64,000 bases of DNA from Flavobacteriaceae bacterium (GTDB taxonomy: Bacteria > Bacteroidota > Bacteroidia > Flavobacteriales > Weeksellaceae): the NCBI GenBank assembly GCA_012522185.1, contig JAAYKY010000057.1:1-64000 (forward strand), in the 5' to 3' direction. Of this stretch, positions 17,229 through 25,226 are shown in pieces. A program made the position numbers and the translations under genes. Positions within the stretch are counted from its first letter, which is position 1; the number at the start of each line of letters is the position of its first letter. The notes beneath the pieces were generated by a model, which saw nothing but the letters and a program-made list of their open reading frames with translations, was not told the DNA's origin and searched no databases.

Positions 17229-18251
17229 TTAATAATAAGGATTACTTCTCCAGTAGTTACGTCCTTGAATCAATCGGTCGAGGTTGATGATCATTCCGAA
17301 ATGATTGGAGTTGGAACCTTTGTAATAATTGGCGTGCGCAAATTCGAAACGGAAGGAATTGATCCGAATGCCAAATCCATACGTCAAACCGGCAAAGGTT
17401 CTTTGGTCTTCTAATTTCAATTCATTTCCTCGTTTAAAATTATAACCCAATCGAATGTTGAACCCACGCCCGGGAAAAAGTTCTGCACCCAATGAAACGT
17501 GGTCGATTACCTTTCGTCCAAAACCTGTTTCCTGCCCATTTTCATTATACGGCATGGAAATATCAAATTTCTGCAAATCATGCAAAGTCATACTTAGTTC
17601 CAAAGGAACGTATTCCAATCGATGTGAAATACCCAAATTGATTTGGAGCGGCATTTTCTCGTAAGTACCATGATAGGTTTTGAGTTGAGCCCCGATGTTT
17701 CGAACCGAAAGAGCCACATTGGTATTGTAATCGATGTCGTGAAAAACAATCCCCAAATCGGCAGCGATGGCATGAGAAGTATAGGATTCAATCCTTGAAT
17801 TGATGTATTTGGCGTTGATTCCCACCGTGAAAAAATCGCTTAGATTTCGAGCGTATCCCACTACAATAGCTGCATCTTTTGCACTGAAATCCCCTGTTGG
17901 ATTGTCATTCTCATCAAATCCACGGAAATCACCATAATCGACATATTGACCATGAATAGAGAAAAATTCATCATCATCGTACTGATACACGGCTGAAATC
18001 GTCCCGAAATTTACATCGGCCAAATAATTGATATAATTGATTCCAAGCTGCCCGTGCGAACTTTCACTCATGAGTGCAGGATTCCAATACGACATATTGG
18101 GATCGTTGTCCCAAGCCGATTGAACATTTCCCCCCAGTGCAGCCTGACGGGGCGAAGTAGTGATGTTCACAAACTCATATACACGTGTTCCGTCCTGGCC
18201 AAGTGCCAAGGTCGTTAGGAGAAAAAACAAAAATCCGAGCTTTTTTGTCAT
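17229..18251 (-). CDS. porQ: Type IX secretion system protein PorQ
   Basis: An outer-membrane beta-barrel protein of 340 residues with a signal peptide ending at LALGQ (about residue 19). The segment TSPRQAALGGNVQSAWDNDPNMSYWNPA is characteristic of PorQ and related PorV-like barrels. In Porphyromonas and Flavobacterium PorQ belongs to the attachment-complex side of type IX secretion. It stands alone and divergent from the CBS-domain gene. Its presence agrees with the sorting-domain protein at 53855-54628. The C-terminus RGRNYWRSNPYY is unusually polar for a barrel end. Confidence 0.85.
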   Translation of the reverse strand: MTKKLGFLFFLLTTLALGQDGTRVYEFVNITTSPRQAALGGNVQSAWDNDPNMSYWNPALMSESSHGQLGINYINYLADVNFGTISAVYQYDDDEFFSIHGQYVDYGDFRGFDENDNPTGDFSAKDAAIVVGYARNLSDFFTVGINAKYINSRIESYTSHAIAADLGIVFHDIDYNTNVALSVRNIGAQLKTYHGTYEKMPLQINLGISHRLEYVPLELSMTLHDLQKFDISMPYNENGQETGFGRKVIDHVSLGAELFPGRGFNIRLGYNFKRGNELKLEDQRTFAGLTYGFGIRINSFRFEFAHANYYKGSNSNHFGMIINLDRLIQGRNYWRSNPYY

Positions 18252-18435
18252 TCGGCAAAAGTAACAATAAAGTATGTAACGTAATTTGATGAAAAATCGT
18301 GTGTAGTAATCTTTTTAAGTTATGAAAAACAAATTAATTTTCAAATGCCGGGCATCATTCTTTTTAGCTTAAAACTTACGGAACTTAGAATTGAAAAGAA
18401 GAAGAGTAAAATTATTAATCCAAAACAAATTAAAA

Positions 18436-18852
18436 ATGAAAAAAAGAGTTCCCATTACGCAGATTATGTCAAAAGACCTTGTAACCCTAAACCCAACAGA
18501 TTCTTTGTATGATGCGGAAAGATTGTTCAACAAGCACAGTATCCGTCACATTCCAGTGGTGGAAGGAGAGCGAATCGTAGGTGTCATCAGCCGTTCCGAT
18601 TTATTGAGAATAAGCTTTGCAGATTTGACAGAAAATGAAGAAACAGTAGAATCTTTTGTTTATGATGCCTACACCATTCCACAAGTGATGACTAGAGTTC
18701 CGGTAACGGTTGAGGCCGATACGACGATAAAGGAAGTCGCAGAAATCTTATCGAAACAAAGTTTCCACTCCATTCCGGTGGTTGAAAAAGGAAAATTGGT
18801 TGGGATCGTGACCACTACCGATTTGATTAATTATCTGTTGGAGCAGTATTAA
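18436..18852 (+). CDS. CBS-domain pair protein
   Basis: A 138-residue cytoplasmic protein made almost entirely of two CBS domains (about 8-65 and 72-136), a Bateman module that usually binds adenine nucleotides. Both carry the typical IMSKDLVTLNPTD / VMTRVPVTVEADT openings and HIPVV / SIPVV cores. I chose ATG at 18436 because translation from the upstream TTG would add a basic stretch not expected in the family. An intrinsic terminator follows. The ligand and partner are unknown; similar stand-alone proteins are annotated as acetoin-utilisation or IMP-dehydrogenase-like by similarity only. Confidence 0.9.
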   Translation: MKKRVPITQIMSKDLVTLNPTDSLYDAERLFNKHSIRHIPVVEGERIVGVISRSDLLRISFADLTENEETVESFVYDAYTIPQVMTRVPVTVEADTTIKEVAEILSKQSFHSIPVVEKGKLVGIVTTTDLINYLLEQY

Positions 18853-18880
18853 AAATAACTCCTTATTGGTTAGGGATAGA

Positions 18881-18916
18881 ACCTCGTCGGAATTTAATTT
18901 TCGGCGGGGTTTTTTA
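18881..18916 (+). terminator. Intrinsic terminator after CBS-domain gene
   Basis: ACCTCGTCGGA pairs, with some G-U, to TCGGCGGGGT around a short AT loop, then six T residues. It separates the CBS gene from the four-gene module. Confidence 0.85.
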
Positions 18917-18919
18917 TTG

Positions 18920-18954
18920 ACGACATAATTTGACGCTTGTTTTCCCTACTTTTG
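18920..18954 (+). promoter_or_regulatory. Promoter and left copy of bracketing direct repeat
   Basis: TACTTTTG (18947-18954) fits the -7 consensus TAnnTTTG and lies 17 bp before the ATPase start codon. Upstream, 18920-18940 reads ACGACAT, two bases, TTTGACG, two bases, TGT. The same pattern occurs at 22437-22457 just after the module. The -33 match (TTTG at 18929-18932) is closer than usual, about 14 bp from the -7 element. Confidence 0.5.
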
Positions 18955-18971
18955 AACCAAACCTTTATGAA

Positions 18972-20087
18972 ATGAAATATTTAGAACTAACCAATTTAGA
19001 CACCTACCAAAAAGAGGTTGTGAAAACCGATAGTAAAGATTTATCGGCCGTTTTTTTGGGTAACGAAAGCCATTATCTCAATTTTTGGGTTCTCTATACT
19101 TCGCTTTTTCAGAAAATCCCCAACAATATCCGTTTGGATAATATAGATGGAGAAAAAGCCTGTCAATGGTTGGAAGAAAATTTCGCATCGGAAATTATTG
19201 AAAAAATTGTTTCGGGCAAAAAACAGAAACCAAACGAAAAGGTGAATGTTTTTGAAACTTATTACATTCTTAGTGATGAATTGATGTTGGCTTTTGAAAT
19301 GAAACAAGATATTGTCAGACTGCTTTTTAAATCATCGGACGAAGAAAAAATCAACAAATTAATAACGCAAATTTCAAAATTCAAAAAGAAAAAAAGCTAT
19401 CGGGATCCGGAATTGAGTTTGTTGATTAACACCAATTACGGTCTCGATACAAAATCACTTAAAATTGCAAAGCCAAAACTCAAGATCGAAGACAATTACA
19501 ACGATGATTTTGTCGAAATACATAAAACCATTCATAAAAGATTGTCCAAAAATAATGACAAAGGATTGGTGCTTTTGCATGGGAAACCCGGAACCGGAAA
19601 GACTTCCTACATCCGCTATCTTATCGGTTCGCTGAAAAAGAAAGTGATTTTTCTTCCGCCCAATTTGGCTTCTGCCATAACAAATCCTGAATTGCTTTCG
19701 GTGTTGATTGACGAACCCAATTCCGTTTTTGTGATTGAAGATGCAGAAAACATCATCATCGACCGCGAAACAGAAGGAAGTTCGCCTGTTTCGGCTTTGC
19801 TTAACCTTTCTGACGGCCTGCTTTCCGATTGTCTCAACATCCAAATCATTTGCTCTTTCAATACTGATTTGTCCAAAGTGGATTCTGCACTTCTGCGCAA
19901 AGGAAGATTGATTGCACAATATGAATTCAAAGAACTGGAAACCGAAAAAGCCCAAGCTTTGTCCGATAAATTAGGATTTCAAACTAAAATCAATGAGCCA
20001 ATGACCCTGACCGACATTTACAATCAGGAAGAAAGAAATTTTGAAAAAAATAAGAACAGGATCGCAATTGGATTTGGGAGCAATTAA
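18972..20087 (+). CDS. BCS1-like AAA ATPase
   Basis: A 371-residue soluble AAA ATPase. The first 180 residues match nothing I recognise. The AAA domain then shows Walker A GKPGTGKT (204-211), Walker B VFVIED (252-257), a polar loop DRETEGSSPVSALLNLSDGLLSD resembling the BCS1 region, a sensor-like SFNTD, and RKGRLIAQYEF (309-319) where BCS1 proteins have RPGR. The replacement of P by K there is unusual. I chose ATG at 18972 because it follows the predicted promoter; an upstream TTG would lie inside it. It opens a four-gene module with nucleic-acid-acting neighbours. A motor or chaperone role for that module is inference. Confidence 0.75.
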   Translation: MKYLELTNLDTYQKEVVKTDSKDLSAVFLGNESHYLNFWVLYTSLFQKIPNNIRLDNIDGEKACQWLEENFASEIIEKIVSGKKQKPNEKVNVFETYYILSDELMLAFEMKQDIVRLLFKSSDEEKINKLITQISKFKKKKSYRDPELSLLINTNYGLDTKSLKIAKPKLKIEDNYNDDFVEIHKTIHKRLSKNNDKGLVLLHGKPGTGKTSYIRYLIGSLKKKVIFLPPNLASAITNPELLSVLIDEPNSVFVIEDAENIIIDRETEGSSPVSALLNLSDGLLSDCLNIQIICSFNTDLSKVDSALLRKGRLIAQYEFKELETEKAQALSDKLGFQTKINEPMTLTDIYNQEERNFEKNKNRIAIGFGSN

Positions 20088-20139
20088 AAATCTTTATATT
20101 CGAAACAGAAAATTCTAATAATCTAAACTTAAAAAAATA

Positions 20140-21261
20140 ATGGAAACAAAAGAATTTGAAATTAGACTAAACAATTGGGCTGAAAAAATTATTGATTATT
20201 GTACACCCATTTCACAATGTCAAAATTTAGAGTATTATCCATTACAATCTCCTGTTAATATCAAGAAAACTGAGGTTCTAATTGTGGGCGTGAATCCTCG
20301 AAGCAATGGAAATCATTATAGTCAAAACCAAAATGAAAAATGGCAGTTTGTCAAAGGTAAAATGACCATTTCAAGATTATTAGGTGGAAACCCATATTTT
20401 TTAAATGATAATAACTGGCGGTTTTTTAATAATTTAAAGCAAATTGACTTCTTAAAAAACAAAATAGAAAATGCAGAGTATACCTATATGAATTATTTCT
20501 ATTTTGCCACAAAAGACGCTAATGAAATGAGAAAAATAGATAAATTTTCAGATATTATTGATTTTTCTAAAGTTTCGTTAAATGAACTTATTGAACTTTT
20601 AAAGCCTAAATTAGTAGTCATTATGGGAGTGAAAGATGGTTTGGATTTAATAAGTGATTCTCCCACAAAAACAATTCTACAAAAAGGAAATAATAGGATT
20701 TTAACGAAGGGGTTATTGAAAAATAAAGTTATCTATGCAATTCCACATCCATCTAGAAATTATGGTTACGACACAAGAAGAGCATTAGACATATGTCTAA
20801 ATGAAATTTATACAGGAAAAGACGAGTTAAGCGTTTTCGAGTTTGAAAATAATAACAAACCAATACTTTCTAAAGAAGTAATTAATATAAACCTGTTAAA
20901 TGATAAATTAAGAAACCATAAAATAGAGTTTTCAAATTATCAAAATAAGTTAGGAATATTTGAAGCCGCTATTCAAGGTGTTTTAGGAGATGTATTAGAC
21001 ATAAGAATTAATACTATTGGAAAGGAAAAGTATGTTTCATTTCGATCAAAAGAAAAATTTCAAAATAGCTTTTATAATCATCTAAAAGGCAAAGATATTT
21101 ATCGTAATTCATTTTCTGGTAAATATGAAACAGAACATCAAAGTTGGTTAGTTTATAAAAACATAAATACTTATTTGAAAAGTAAATCCCTCGAAGAACA
21201 TGTTTCTGAAGATTTAATTCAATTAATCAATAAAATAAATAAGTATAGTTCTGAACTATGA
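20140..21261 (+). CDS. Uracil-DNA-glycosylase-like protein (tentative), AT-rich
   Basis: A 373-residue protein I cannot assign firmly. The first 225 residues resemble the uracil-DNA glycosylase fold: VLIVGVNPRSNG (about 47-58) sits where motif I (GxNPG-like) would be, and YAIPHPSRNYG (about 206-216) resembles the HPS motif. The last 150 residues are of unknown family and rich in lysine and asparagine. The gene is visibly more AT-rich than its neighbours, a sign of foreign origin. Its stop overlaps the next start as ATGA, so it is translationally coupled to the exonuclease. Damaged- or modified-base recognition is possible but unproven. Confidence 0.5.
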   Translation: METKEFEIRLNNWAEKIIDYCTPISQCQNLEYYPLQSPVNIKKTEVLIVGVNPRSNGNHYSQNQNEKWQFVKGKMTISRLLGGNPYFLNDNNWRFFNNLKQIDFLKNKIENAEYTYMNYFYFATKDANEMRKIDKFSDIIDFSKVSLNELIELLKPKLVVIMGVKDGLDLISDSPTKTILQKGNNRILTKGLLKNKVIYAIPHPSRNYGYDTRRALDICLNEIYTGKDELSVFEFENNNKPILSKEVININLLNDKLRNHKIEFSNYQNKLGIFEAAIQGVLGDVLDIRINTIGKEKYVSFRSKEKFQNSFYNHLKGKDIYRNSFSGKYETEHQSWLVYKNINTYLKSKSLEEHVSEDLIQLINKINKYSSEL

Positions 21262-21743
21262 CTATGCAAAACACATTCACAGCCATTGATTTTGAAACGG
21301 CACAAGGCTATCGTTGGAGCATTTGTCAGGTGGGATTGGTCAGAGTTGAAAGTGGCATCATAACCGATAAATTGTCGATTTTGGTGCAACCGCCCGATAA
21401 TTATTATTGGTATAAAAACATAGAAATTCACGGCATCACACCGACACATACTGCCAATGCACCAAATTTTGGGCAAATTTGGTCTAAGATAGAACCTTTC
21501 ATCAAGCACCAAAACGTAGTTGCGCACAATGCATTTGGGTTTGATTTTCCTTGTCTCAAACAAACTTTGGAATTGTATGGATTACAGATGCCTGAATTCA
21601 ATGGATATTGTACGTACAAAATTTTCCGAAAAAGGCTCAATTTGCTCTGTCAGGAGCACCAGATTCTGCTTAATCATCACGATGCGCTCAGCGATGCTTT
21701 GGCTTGTGCGGAATTGTATAAAATTTATCTGAGTAATTTGTAG
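21258..21743 (+). CDS. DnaQ-like DEDDh 3'-5' exonuclease
   Basis: A 161-residue stand-alone exonuclease. Motif I is FTAIDFETA (D and E as metal ligands), motif II is VVAHNAFGFDFPCL, and motif III is HHDALSDALACAELY, with the histidine placing it in the DEDDh class. The domain is about the size of the DNA polymerase III epsilon core without the clamp-binding tail. It overlaps the UDG-like gene by ATGA. A second in-frame ATG two codons downstream could also be used. The pairing of a glycosylase-like protein with an exonuclease suggests they act on the same DNA or RNA substrate. Confidence 0.9.
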   Translation: MTMQNTFTAIDFETAQGYRWSICQVGLVRVESGIITDKLSILVQPPDNYYWYKNIEIHGITPTHTANAPNFGQIWSKIEPFIKHQNVVAHNAFGFDFPCLKQTLELYGLQMPEFNGYCTYKIFRKRLNLLCQEHQILLNHHDALSDALACAELYKIYLSNL

Positions 21744-21817
21744 ATTTCTCATTTTTGTTATTTCGACGACACAGATTGGCGGAGTCAGATGTTAAATTAG
21801 CGCCAGAAAACTTTGAA

Positions 21818-22423
21818 ATGCGCATTTTACACCTTTCTGACACTCATAATCAGCACAATTTTCTAAATGATTTACCCGAAGTGGATCTCATCATTCATTC
21901 CGGAGATTTCTCTTTTGCAGGTACGGAATCTGAATTTCGAGATTTTTTGAAATGGTTCTTGAATTTGAATTATCAATATAAAATTTTCATCGGAGGCAAT
22001 CACGATAGTTTTTTAGAAGAAAATTCCCGAAAAGAAATACAATCTATTTTGCCTGAAAACTGTTATTATCTTCGACATAGTGGAATTAAGATTGAAAATC
22101 TAAAATTTTGGGGCGTGCCGATGTTCGTTTCAGAAGACATTGACGGCAGTTATTTTGAACAAATCAAAAAAATTCCTGCTGATATTGATGTGCTTGTTTC
22201 CCATCATCCGCCTTTGGGGATTTTGGATCTGGACGGCAAAATCAATTTTGGTTGCTCAGAATTATTGCATAAAACATTGGAAATCAAACCTAAATTCCAT
22301 CTGTTTGGACACATTCACAATGCTTACGGAATCGAAAAGTCGAAATCCACAACCTTTATCAATTCTTCCGTTCTAAATGGAAATTATGAACGTACAAATC
22401 CACCGATTTTATTTGAGGTTTAG
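21818..22423 (+). CDS. Calcineurin-like metallophosphoesterase
   Basis: A 201-residue phosphoesterase with all motifs of the family: LSDTH (DxH), HSGDF (GD), GGNHDSF (GNHD), SHHPPLGIL and FGHIHNAYG (GHxH). It resembles the short MPPED/239AB-type group, which hydrolyses cyclic nucleotides or phosphodiesters in some members. I chose ATG at 21818 because MRILHLSDTH is the family's usual opening; the upstream TTG extension has no conserved sequence. It lies 74 bp after the exonuclease, the last gene of the module. Its substrate cannot be told from sequence. Confidence 0.9.
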   Translation: MRILHLSDTHNQHNFLNDLPEVDLIIHSGDFSFAGTESEFRDFLKWFLNLNYQYKIFIGGNHDSFLEENSRKEIQSILPENCYYLRHSGIKIENLKFWGVPMFVSEDIDGSYFEQIKKIPADIDVLVSHHPPLGILDLDGKINFGCSELLHKTLEIKPKFHLFGHIHNAYGIEKSKSTTFINSSVLNGNYERTNPPILFEV

Positions 22424-22436
22424 ATTAATTTTTTCA

Positions 22437-22457
22437 ACGACATTGTTTGACGGATGT
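22437..22457. repeat. Right copy of bracketing 21-bp direct repeat
   Basis: ACGACAT, two bases, TTTGACG, two bases, TGT, with the same spacing as 18920-18940; 17 of 21 positions agree. A shorter inverted copy (14 bases identical to the left copy) is at 31567-31580. Confidence 0.5.
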
Positions 22458-22487
22458 GAGTTTTTAAGTTTGTAGGAAGGTAAGTAA

Positions 22488-22517
22488 CCTTGTCAAGGTT
22501 TCAAATCCTTGACAAGG
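22488..22517. repeat. Perfect 11-bp inverted repeat with GGTTTCAAA core
   Basis: CCTTGTCAAGG (22488-22498) and CCTTGACAAGG (22507-22517) pair perfectly around TTTCAAAT. The centre matches the element at 4218-4251. Such palindromes are dispersed in many flavobacterial genomes, from general knowledge. Confidence 0.75.
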
Positions 22518-22565
22518 CTAAATATTTTCAGTAATCAAATCTTTTTTACAGAGATTAATTTAATC

Positions 22566-22617
22566 CCCCCTCCTTTGGGGAGCCTGTCCCGAACTTGATT
22601 CGGGAGGTTAGGGGAGG
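22566..22617. repeat. GC-rich dispersed hairpin element
   Basis: CCCCTCC...GGGGAG and GGGGAGG flank an inner TCCCGAACTTGATTCGGGA hairpin. The sequence is far more GC-rich than its surroundings and ends just before the alaS stop codon. It may double as a terminator region for the convergent genes. Confidence 0.55.
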
Positions 22618-22619
22618 CT

Positions 22620-25226
22620 TTAAGTGAGGCTCTTCGCCTTTTCCAGCGCTCTGTCCAATCCGCTTACATCCTTTCCTCCGGCAGTTGCAAAGAAAGGCTG
22701 TCCGCCGCCGCCGCCTTGGATTTCTTTTCCTAATTCACGCACGATCTGTCCGGCATTCAATCCTTTGCTTTCCACTAATTCATCGGAAATCGAAACGGTG
22801 ATCGAAGGTTTTCCATTGTGATCAGAACCTACCACCAAAAACAGATTTTCTATTTCTTTTCGGAGTGGAAAAGCGATTTGTTTGATGGTATTCGCATCCA
22901 AACTTGTACGAACCGCCAGGAAATTCACACCATTGATGTTTTCAAAAGACTTTTTCCAGGTTTCTTTTTCCATTTGGGCTTGTTGCAGTACAAATTTTTC
23001 CAATTGGGATTTCAACTCTTTGTTCTCATCCACTAATTTTTGAACCGCATCAATTGGATCAGCTGGATTTTTCAGTTCCGCAAGAATTTGATTGTATTGA
23101 TTAAATGTATCTTTCAATTCTTCAATCGCCGCAAATCCGGTCGTAGCTTCGATTCTTCGGATTCCGGCTGCGCTTGAACTTTCGCTTTGTAATTTGAACA
23201 TAATCACATCGGCCGTATTTTGAACATGCGTTCCACCACATAATTCAATCGATTTTCCGAATTTAATCATCCGAACGACATCGCCGTATTTCTCTCCGAA
23301 AAGCGCCATGGCGCCTTCTTCCAATGCTTTTTTGAAAGGAACCGAACGCTTTTCTTCCAAAGGAATTCTTTCTGCAATTCGCGTATTTACCTGACGAATT
23401 ACTTCTCTGAGTTCATCCTCACTCAATTTATTGAAATGCGAAAAGTCAAATCGTAAATAATCAGGTCCCACATACGAACCTTTTTGTTCCACGTGCGTTC
23501 CCAAAACGTCGCGCAATGCTTCGTGCAAAAGGTGAGTGGCCGTGTGGTTGCGCATAATATGATTGCGACGTTCCTTATCCACCACCGCATGAAACGGAAG
23601 TTCCAAATATTTCGGAAGTTCTTTGGTGAAATGAACGATCAGATTATTTTCTTTTTTGGTATTGATAATTTCAACTTTTTCGAATTGATTTTCAATGAAA
23701 CCGGTATCGCCCACCTGACCACCGCTCTCAGCATAGAAAGGCGTTGCTTGAAAAACCAACTGATAAAAAGTTCCAGTTTTGTTCGCCACCTGACGATAAC
23801 GCGTGATTTTCACATCGGTTTCCAAATAATCGTATCCGATGAATTCTTCCACTTTGTCTTCGATCAATTCTGTCCAGTCAGAAGCCGAAAAAGAAGTCGC
23901 CGATTTGGATCGTTGTTTTTGTTTTTCCATTTCGGATTCAAATCCCTTTTCGTCGATGGTCAATTCTTTTTCTTCCGCAATAATTCTCGACAAATCCGCC
24001 GGGAAACCATAAGTATCGTAGAGTTCAAACACCACATCGCCCGGAATTTCTTTCAGATTGGAATTTTGCTGGATGAAATTATCGAGTCGAACCAATCCCT
24101 GATCGATGGTACGCAAGAAGTTGGTTTCTTCTTCTTTGATTACATCGGTTATCAATTGAGATTGTTTTTCCAGTTCCGGGAAAAATTCGCCCATTTGGGA
24201 TTTCAGCGTTGGAATTAATTTATAAATAAAAGCTTCGTTCAAATCCAGAAAACGATATCCATAACTAATCGCACGTCTTAAAATCCGACGAATTACATAT
24301 CCGGCACCCGAATTCGAAGGCAATTGGCCGTCGGCAATCACAAAAGAAACCGCACGCAAATGGTCTACCACCACGCGGAAAGCCACATCACTCGTGAAAT
24401 CGACACCGTATTTCTTACCTGAAATTCTTTCTAAATCATCAATCAGAGGGCGGAATACATCCGTATCATAATTCGAAGTTTTTCCCTGTAAAACCATTGC
24501 CAAACGCTCAAATCCCATTCCGGTATCGATGCTTTTGGACGGTAAAATTTCCAGTGAACCATCGGCTTTGCGCAAGTATTGCATAAAAACCAGGTTCCAG
24601 ACTTCAATTACCTGCGGATGATCTTGATTGACCAAATCCCTTCCCGGCGTTTTCATTTTTTCTTCCGCCGAACGGATGTCCACATGGATTTCCGAACAAG
24701 GTCCACAAGGTCCCGTTTCACCCATTTCCCAGAAATTGTCTTTTTTGTTTCCGAAGAGAATTCGGTCCTCGGCAATATGTTTTTTCCAAAGTTCAAGCGC
24801 TTCCTCATCCTGAGCGGTTCCGTCTTTTTCGTCGCCTTCAAAAACGGTTACATAAAGATTTTCCTTGGGGATTTTATAAACTTCGGTCAAAAGTTCCCAC
24901 GCCCAGTCGATAGCTTCTTTTTTGAAATAATCTCCAAAAGACCAGTTCCCGAGCATTTCAAACATGGTGTGGTGGTAAGTGTCTTTCCCTACATCATCCA
25001 AATCGTTGTGCTTACCGGAAACGCGAAGGCATTTTTGGGTATCGGCAATCCGGGGTGAAGTGGGTTTTTTATAGCCGAGAAAAAAATCTTTGAACTGTGC
25101 CATTCCGGAGTTGTTGAACATCAGGGTGGGATCGTCTTTCAGGACAATCGGTGCAGACGGCACGATAAGGTGTTCTTTGGATTCAAAAAAGTCTAAAAAC
25201 TGTTTACGTATCTCTTTGGAAGTCAT
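22620..25226 (-). CDS. alaS: Alanyl-tRNA synthetase
   Basis: Charges tRNA-Ala. The 868-residue length is normal. The class II catalytic domain (about 1-240) carries [14 protein letters not shown] and [14 protein letters not shown]; the tRNA-recognition domain follows, then the editing domain (about 560-710) with [11 protein letters not shown] and CGGTHVQNT zinc-binding motifs, a coiled segment and the C-terminal DHHA1 domain ending [14 protein letters not shown]. The start [14 protein letters not shown] is standard. The gene is monocistronic. A weak promoter (GATTTTTG on the minus strand, near 25250) precedes it. Confidence 0.98.

What the first reader, a model, noticed from the sequence alone, without database searches (positions are those of the whole stretch)
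18920..22457. Four-gene accessory module: AAA ATPase, UDG-like protein, DEDD exonuclease, metallophosphoesterase
A BCS1-like ATPase, an AT-rich UDG-like protein, an exonuclease coupled to it by an ATGA overlap and a phosphoesterase are consecutive on one strand. All four could act on nucleic acids or nucleotides. The AT-rich second gene suggests transfer. Such combinations of ATPase, base-recognition and nuclease genes often occur in phage-defence systems, but I know of no described system with exactly this set.
Basis: partly seen in the sequence, partly recalled or inferred. Interest (0 to 1): 0.66.

Follow-up and report, generated by a model that had tools for sequence, protein, structure and literature searches.

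The report
Co-regulated, modular phage-defence-type gene cluster
Four neighbouring genes (an ATPase, a DNA-glycosylase-like enzyme, an exonuclease and a phosphodiesterase) look like interchangeable parts of bacterial phage-defence islands, and they carry the same unusual promoter switch as two other clusters in the same genome, probably read by a WYL-type sensor protein.

Summary
The four genes are real: BCS1-like AAA ATPase, UDG-superfamily protein (residues ~4-228 plus an unassigned C-terminal part), DEDDh exonuclease, MPPED2-like metallophosphoesterase. They are not a fixed four-gene system: all four together occur only here among 246 family genomes. They are recurring parts of WYL-regulator-linked defence islands. 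WYL genes lie within 10 kb of 4/5 UDG, 3/7 AAA, 5/6 close exonuclease and 8/13 phosphoesterase relatives (expected 0.1-0.2 each).

With a Bacteroidota -7 box (TANNTTTG) exactly 11 bp downstream, it precedes AAA (18921) and the phosphoesterase (21767, one mismatch), and WYL, UDG-operon and AAA genes elsewhere: 22 of 24 hits at gap 11, against a mean of 0.1 (maximum 3) for 200 permuted operators. None occurs in 392 kb of other own-genome sequence. No WYL gene lies on the focal contig; the genome's two are at related clusters. Best reading: a dispersed WYL-type defence regulon; the glycosylase-like protein probably attacks phage DNA as Brig1 does. Binding and function are untested; an S24/LexA-like regulator is the main rival.

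The parts
18921..18935 (+). Operator-like palindrome R1, CGACA-TAATT-TGACG, upstream of the AAA operon
   Evidence: exact match to CGNCA-N5-TGNCG, 36 nt before ATG 18972
18947..18954 (+). -7 box TACTTTTG (TANNTTTG), 11 bp after R1
18972..20087 (+). BCS1/YjoB-like AAA ATPase (371 aa from ATG; ORF opens at TTG 18930)
   Evidence: Pfam AAA 2.4e-11; Bcs1 best PDB sequence match 1.9e-9; fold Z 15.6 YjoB, 15.0 Bcs1
20140..21261 (+). UDG-superfamily protein, 373 aa; UDG domain ~4-228 with N52-P53 and H203-P204-S205, plus C-terminal ~250-372 part of unknown fold
21258..21743 (+). DEDDh 3'-5' exonuclease, 161 aa, ATGA overlap with the UDG gene
   Evidence: RNase_T 1.4e-15; D11, E13, D96, H141, D146 invariant in 7 of 7
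21767..21781 (+). Operator-like palindrome R2, CGACA-CAGAT-TGGCG, upstream of the phosphoesterase
   Evidence: 36 nt before ATG 21818, the same distance as R1
21793..21800 (+). -7-like box TAAATTAG (one mismatch), 11 bp after R2
21818..22423 (+). MPPED2-like calcineurin-type metallophosphoesterase (about 201 aa from ATG; ORF opens at TTG 21755)
   Evidence: Metallophos 5.8e-13; PADLOC PDC-S10 7e-75; PDB MPPED2 1.6e-54 with profile A3
22438..22452 (+). Operator-like palindrome R3, CGACA-TTGTT-TGACG, no gene downstream before the 3' end of alaS
   Evidence: gap of 12 to TAAGTTTG at 22465-22472
17229..18251 (-). Flank: PorV-like gene
   Evidence: Pfam PorV 1e-6; same neighbour in G009 and G038
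22620..25226 (-). Flank: alaS; same neighbour in G009 and G055

Best explanation
The locus is a variable defence-gene site between a PorV-like gene and alaS, holding two transcription units (AAA-UDG-exonuclease; phosphoesterase) under one composite promoter/operator, CGNCA-N5-TGNCG-N11-TANNTTTG. The same element stands before WYL-regulator genes and other defence-type operons in this family. Inferred mechanism: a WYL-domain repressor encoded elsewhere in the genome (candidates at C50 and C14) sits on the operator and, on sensing a nucleotide or nucleic-acid signal of infection or DNA damage, releases both units together. The UDG-superfamily protein then excises a (probably modified) base from invading DNA, the DEDDh exonuclease trims the resulting broken strands, the BCS1-like AAA remodels a complex, and the MPPED-type phosphodiesterase hydrolyses a cyclic nucleotide or cyclic-phosphate end, perhaps clearing the signal. 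Shown here: gene identities, patchy and modular distribution, linkage to WYL genes, the composite element and its spacing. Inferred: WYL binding, induction, every biochemical step.
For: WYL within 10 kb: UDG 4/5, AAA 3/7, exo 5/6, MPE 8/13, against 0.1-0.2 expected. Neighbours of relatives: type IIG RM, GmrSD_N pairs, IetA-like and KAP NTPases, SLOG, cREC. In the same genome, C50 carries exo-MPE-AAA-WYL and C14 AAA plus WYL. Composite element: 24 hits in 58 loci (634 kb), 22 at gap exactly 11 with gaps 0-17 allowed; 200 permuted operators gave mean 0.1, maximum 3 at gap 11. Window: 2 hits at <=1 mismatch, 0 in 100 shuffles. Operator 36-45 nt before the ATG in 6 of 7 AAA genes, against 17 of 282 other ORFs with one within 150 nt, several of them first genes of the same islands. 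WYL genes with the element in their own promoter: L076, L081, L087, L169, L190. 0 strict hits in 392 kb of other own-genome sequence. UDG residues N52, P53, H203, P204, S205 invariant in 4 of 4. Further PF03167 matches in WYL loci L175, L190, L187 and at the same site in G009.
Against: No WYL gene on the focal contig; regulation would have to act in trans. G055 has an AAA gene with the element, but no WYL gene was found in that genome. 26 of 46 WYL genes tested have no element within 5 kb even at 2 mismatches. The element was derived from the focal sites and refined by eye on orthologous upstreams before the scan; some loci are near-duplicates (L160/L170, L082/L175). Bacteroidota LexA-like S24 repressors also use dyads with an N5 spacer (PMC8565304, passages). 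A copy stands before recA in G009 (L187), not a defence gene. The exonuclease and UDG are not always with AAA or MPE, so joint function is not shown. No phage or enzymatic data.
Confidence: 0.6

Rival explanations
1. The element is read by a LexA-like S24-family repressor, so the cluster belongs to an SOS-type regulon and the proteins are DNA-repair rather than defence enzymes.
For: Bacteroidetes LexA-like proteins bind CTAA-N5-TTAG or GGA-N5-TCC, and Weeksellaceae paralogues have diverged dyads that keep the N5 spacer (PMC8565304, passages). A one-mismatch element lies 84 nt before recA in G009 (RecA named from its sequence, recalled). UDG, exonuclease and AAA are plausible repair proteins.
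Against: The element stands in the promoters of five WYL genes, and no S24 gene was noted beside it, though S24 genes were not searched for systematically. It was absent from 392 kb of own-genome sequence. Genes under it are patchy and sit with restriction genes.
Confidence: 0.2
2. The genes are a chance pile-up of unrelated accessory genes at an insertion-prone site, with a general Bacteroidota promoter motif and no shared function.
For: The four genes occur together only here. Gene order and content differ between G000, G009, G055 and G038 at this site.
Against: Exo, MPE and AAA recur together at a second place in the same genome; exo-MPE pairs occur on Marinobacter plasmids with a 4-base overlap. 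The composite element has a fixed gap and is not a general promoter.
Confidence: 0.15
3. The UDG-like protein is an ordinary uracil-repair enzyme carried as cargo.
For: UDG fold and NP/HPS motifs as in active uracil glycosylases (motif assignment recalled).
Against: No match in 236 of 246 family genomes by this search, found with WYL genes in 4 of 5 places, and carries an extra ~120-residue part.
Confidence: 0.2

Closest known systems
Brig1 / Brig3 anti-phage DNA glycosylases (PMC11078745; PMC13160076)
   Same: UDG superfamily, lone glycosylase genes in defence islands, operons with helper enzymes
   Different: Described Brig1 homologues are mostly in Actinobacteria; Brig3 partners a deglucosylase (BapA). 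Here the partners are AAA and exonuclease, with an extra C-terminal part. No sequence comparison with Brig proteins was possible, and the substrate is unknown.
BrxR-type WYL repressors of defence islands (PMC9122601)
   Same: WYL regulator tied to diverse defence genes; palindromic operator with 5-bp spacer; autoregulation
   Different: BrxR arms are 11 bp and the gene is local; here the arms are 5 bp, there is a fixed 11-bp gap to a TANNTTTG box, and the regulator would act in trans on several dispersed clusters.
NAD/ADPr and RNA-repair neighbourhoods with cREC, WYL, SLOG and calcineurin-like enzymes (PMC9503650, PMC7824862)
   Same: MPE relatives fused to cREC; WYL, cREC and SLOG side by side in L160
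   Different: The focal locus itself has no cREC, SLOG or NAD enzyme; UDG and exonuclease are added.
PADLOC PDC-S10 and Cas-associated DEDDh models
   Same: MPE 249 bits to PDC-S10; exo 83 bits to DEDDh
   Different: PDC-S10 is a candidate family (meaning of PDC recalled); the exonuclease here is not next to Cas genes.

Membership tests
UDG superfamily | UDG fold | tested here: met
   Z 11.6 over 168-171 residues
UDG superfamily | motif I (GxNP-like) and motif II (HPS) | tested here: met
   N52-P53 and H203-P204-S205 invariant in 4 of 4; the Gly of motif I is Ala in one; motif meaning recalled
Brig anti-phage glycosylases | sequence relation to Brig1/Brig3 | not tested
   no Brig sequence at hand; none was named among PDB matches
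Brig anti-phage glycosylases | excision of a modified phage base giving phage resistance | not testable with these tools
   -
Brig anti-phage glycosylases | location in defence islands | tested here: met
   WYL within 10 kb in 4 of 5 places; focal site in a variable island with the shared element
WYL-regulated defence island | WYL gene in the locus | tested here: not met
   no WYL on the focal contig; two elsewhere in the genome
WYL-regulated defence island | palindromic operator shared with WYL promoters | tested here: met
WYL-regulated defence island | regulator binds the operator | not testable with these tools
DEDDh exonuclease | D-E-D-H-D residues | tested here: met
   D11, E13, D96, H141, D146 invariant in 7 of 7; roles recalled
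MPPED / class III cyclic-nucleotide phosphodiesterase | sequence relation and metal ligands (D-H, D, N, H, H-H) | tested here: met
   MPPED2 1.6e-54; D9, H11, D31, N62, H130, H166, H168 invariant in 8 of 8, alignment numbering; ligand roles recalled
MPPED / class III cyclic-nucleotide phosphodiesterase | cyclic nucleotide hydrolysis | not testable with these tools
   -
BCS1-type AAA | BCS1-like AAA domain | tested here: met
   best PDB sequence matches are BCS1; fold Z 15.0-15.6 to Bcs1 and YjoB
BCS1-type AAA | N-terminal membrane segment and BCS1 middle domain | tested here: inconclusive
   N-terminal 35 residues have pLDDT under 50; residues 37-142 were aligned only in the poorer superpositions
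Bacteroidetes LexA-like regulon | CTAA-N5-TTAG or GGA-N5-TCC operator | tested here: not met
   focal operators are CGNCA-N5-TGNCG; diverged paralogues are not excluded

The most novel reading that the evidence does not exclude
Weeksellaceae run a dispersed immune regulon: one WYL-type sensor in trans switches on several unlinked clusters through a fixed 34-bp operator-promoter cassette that travels with each gene set, and several distinct UDG-superfamily glycosylases in these clusters serve as interchangeable recognisers of modified phage bases, with a DNA-damage link (recA in one species).
Probability: 0.3. Interest if true: 0.75.

Novelty: new variant of a known kind. Interest (0 to 1): 0.56.

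Why it matters
How dispersed defence genes are switched on together is little known. A short, fixed operator-promoter cassette that recurs before WYL genes and before unlinked defence clusters would give a sequence tag to find the whole regulon, and a direct test of trans control. It would also extend anti-phage glycosylases to Bacteroidota, with new partner enzymes.

Tried and rejected
Integron cassettes: the recurring ~300-aa neighbour looked like an integrase, but it is a WYL regulator. Recombination-site reading of the direct repeats: dropped when two of the three copies proved to lie 36 nt before start codons with a -7 box at gap 11 and the motif recurred before orthologues. AT-richness as proof of recent transfer: rejected, a family trait. 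A wide family of the full-length UDG-like protein: the genome-contig scan gave 3 loci already known, 345 phylum genomes gave only the own genome at 1e-8, plasmids none, phages one 27% partial match. The C-terminal UDG part was not predicted alone, so its fold stays open. Genome-wide CGNCA-N5-TGNCG without the -7 box is too loose: 28 in the own genome against 9 for the reversed control, and G055 had 23 against 41; many hits are coding or look like 16S rRNA. Rfam: nothing in 18000-23000. Candidate UDG-like neighbours picked by eye: 3 of 6 had a PF03167 match. Of 47 WYL places one (G042:C28) was not fetched, so 46 were tested; the G167, G171, G181 and G151 loci are near relatives. L172 overlaps L160 and was left out of the counts. 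Literature: no paper held at least 4 of the 5 terms WYL domain, metallophosphoesterase, exonuclease, defense island, uracil-DNA glycosylase.
Full report
Observation. The four ORFs exist as described, on one strand, with the ATGA overlap between the UDG-like and exonuclease genes. Family matches: AAA 2.4e-11, RNase_T 1.4e-15, Metallophos 5.8e-13; UDG only 0.003, below its cut-off. The UDG call rests on fold: the AlphaFold model (mean pLDDT 75, 4 aligned sequences) aligns over residues ~3-228 with bacterial and archaeal UDGs at Z 11.6, and N52-P53 and H203-P204-S205 are invariant in 4 of 4 relatives. The remaining ~120 residues have no assigned fold. The ATPase is BCS1/YjoB-like, the phosphoesterase MPPED2-like with its metal ligands intact, the exonuclease DEDDh with its residues intact.

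Distribution. Of 246 genomes of the family, matches were found in 10 (UDG), 9 (AAA), 20 (MPE; about 13 strong places) and 241 (exonuclease, a large family; only 6 genomes with 60% identity or more). All four occur together only in this genome. The genus site between PorV-like and alaS holds AAA-UDG-exo-MPE here, a different UDG-superfamily gene with MPE and AAA in G009, AAA beside alaS in G055, and WYL-cREC-exo (84% exonuclease) beside PorV in G038, where alaS lies 48 kb away. Flanking PorV and alaS are 78-88% identical across these genomes while AAA and MPE are 57-71%. In the same genome, contig C50 holds exo-MPE-AAA-WYL and C14 holds AAA with a WYL gene. Outside the family, two Marinobacter plasmids have exonuclease-MPE pairs with a 4-base overlap, and a Prevotella plasmid has WYL-exo-DUF262-DUF262 beside MBL-MPE.

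Defence linkage. A WYL gene lies within 10 kb of 4 of 5 UDG, 3 of 7 AAA, 5 of 6 close exonuclease and 8 of 13 MPE places; expected by WYL density 0.11, 0.12, 0.12 and 0.20. Neighbours include a type IIG RM enzyme, GmrSD_N proteins, IetA-like AAA, KAP NTPase, PD-(D/E)XK, SLOG and cREC proteins. UDG-superfamily matches recur in WYL loci: L175 (3.4e-4), L190 (2.3e-5, over the cut-off), L187 (0.007).

The composite element. The finding's limits coincide with copies of a direct repeat. Three copies, CGACA-N5-TG(A/G)CG, lie at 18921, 21767 and 22438. The first two lie 36 nt before the AAA and MPE ATGs. A genus-wide scan of a longer form found only these three plus one one-mismatch match (pattern made from these sites). 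Upstreams of orthologues showed the same palindrome and a TANNTTTG box (the box is the Bacteroidota -7 consensus, recalled; a search listing found it in Flavobacterium papers). In 58 held loci (634 kb), allowing one mismatch in the operator and any gap of 0-17, 24 hits were found, 22 at gap 11. With 200 letter-permuted operators the mean was 1.39 in total (maximum 9) and 0.1 at gap 11 (maximum 3). I had seen the spacing by eye in about four sites before this scan; some loci are near-duplicates, so independent sites are perhaps 18-19. Downstream genes: AAA (W, L078, L079, L080), WYL (L076, L081, L087, L169, L190), exo operon (L076), UDG operons (L082, L175, and the 137-aa/UDG-like unit of L078), IetA-like AAA (L094), SLOG/WYL and 160-aa/cREC units (L160, L170), recA (L187), small unassigned first genes (L083, L093, L174). 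Around WYL genes, 15 of 46 had it within 5 kb at <=1 mismatch and 20 at <=2; control loci (195 kb) held 1 strict hit against 24 in 501 kb of module and WYL loci. A 392-kb sample of the own genome held none.

Interpretation. BrxR shows that WYL proteins repress defence islands from inverted repeats with a 5-bp spacer (PMC9122601, passages). WYL proteins are linked to cyclic-nucleotide, cREC and SLOG neighbourhoods (PMC9503650 and PMC7824862, passages). I therefore propose a WYL regulon acting in trans on this cluster. The main rival is an S24 LexA-like paralogue: such repressors in Bacteroidetes use N5-spaced dyads and diverge in Weeksellaceae (PMC8565304, passages), and the recA hit fits that too. 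The UDG-like enzyme most resembles Brig1 and Brig3 in concept (PMC11078745 passages; PMC13160076 abstract and passages), but no sequence comparison with them was possible. That the family is Weeksellaceae is inferred from a Kaistella record identical in length to a G167 contig and recall.

Verdict. Real, defence-type and co-regulated by inference; not a fixed four-gene system. A new variant of a known kind; biochemical roles are inferred from families only.

Noticed in passing
window 22438-22472: A third operator plus TAAGTTTG box (gap 12) points at the 3' end of alaS with no gene behind it: possibly a relic of a lost cassette or an unannotated small RNA.
   Followed up: partly
L187 2403-2436 (G009, minus strand): A one-mismatch composite element 84 nt before recA, beside a WYL gene and a UDG-like gene: possible DNA-damage link of the regulon.
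   Followed up: partly
window 18972-20087: The AAA domain is 43.5% identical over residues 146-369 to proteins of large Pseudomonas phages (PA5oct group), annotated ATPase or hypothetical.
   Followed up: no
L160 / L170: A Kaistella cluster with cREC, WYL, SLOG (YAcAr) and PD-(D/E)XK genes under three copies of the element: a compact second model locus.
   Followed up: partly
window 18391-18852: A two-CBS-domain protein lies between PorV and the module; no relative was seen in the fetched regions of the other genomes at this site.
   Followed up: no
G167:C16:1453 and similar: CGTCAGCTCGTGCCG hits of the loose operator pattern look like 16S rRNA (recognised from recall), a source of false positives.
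   Followed up: no
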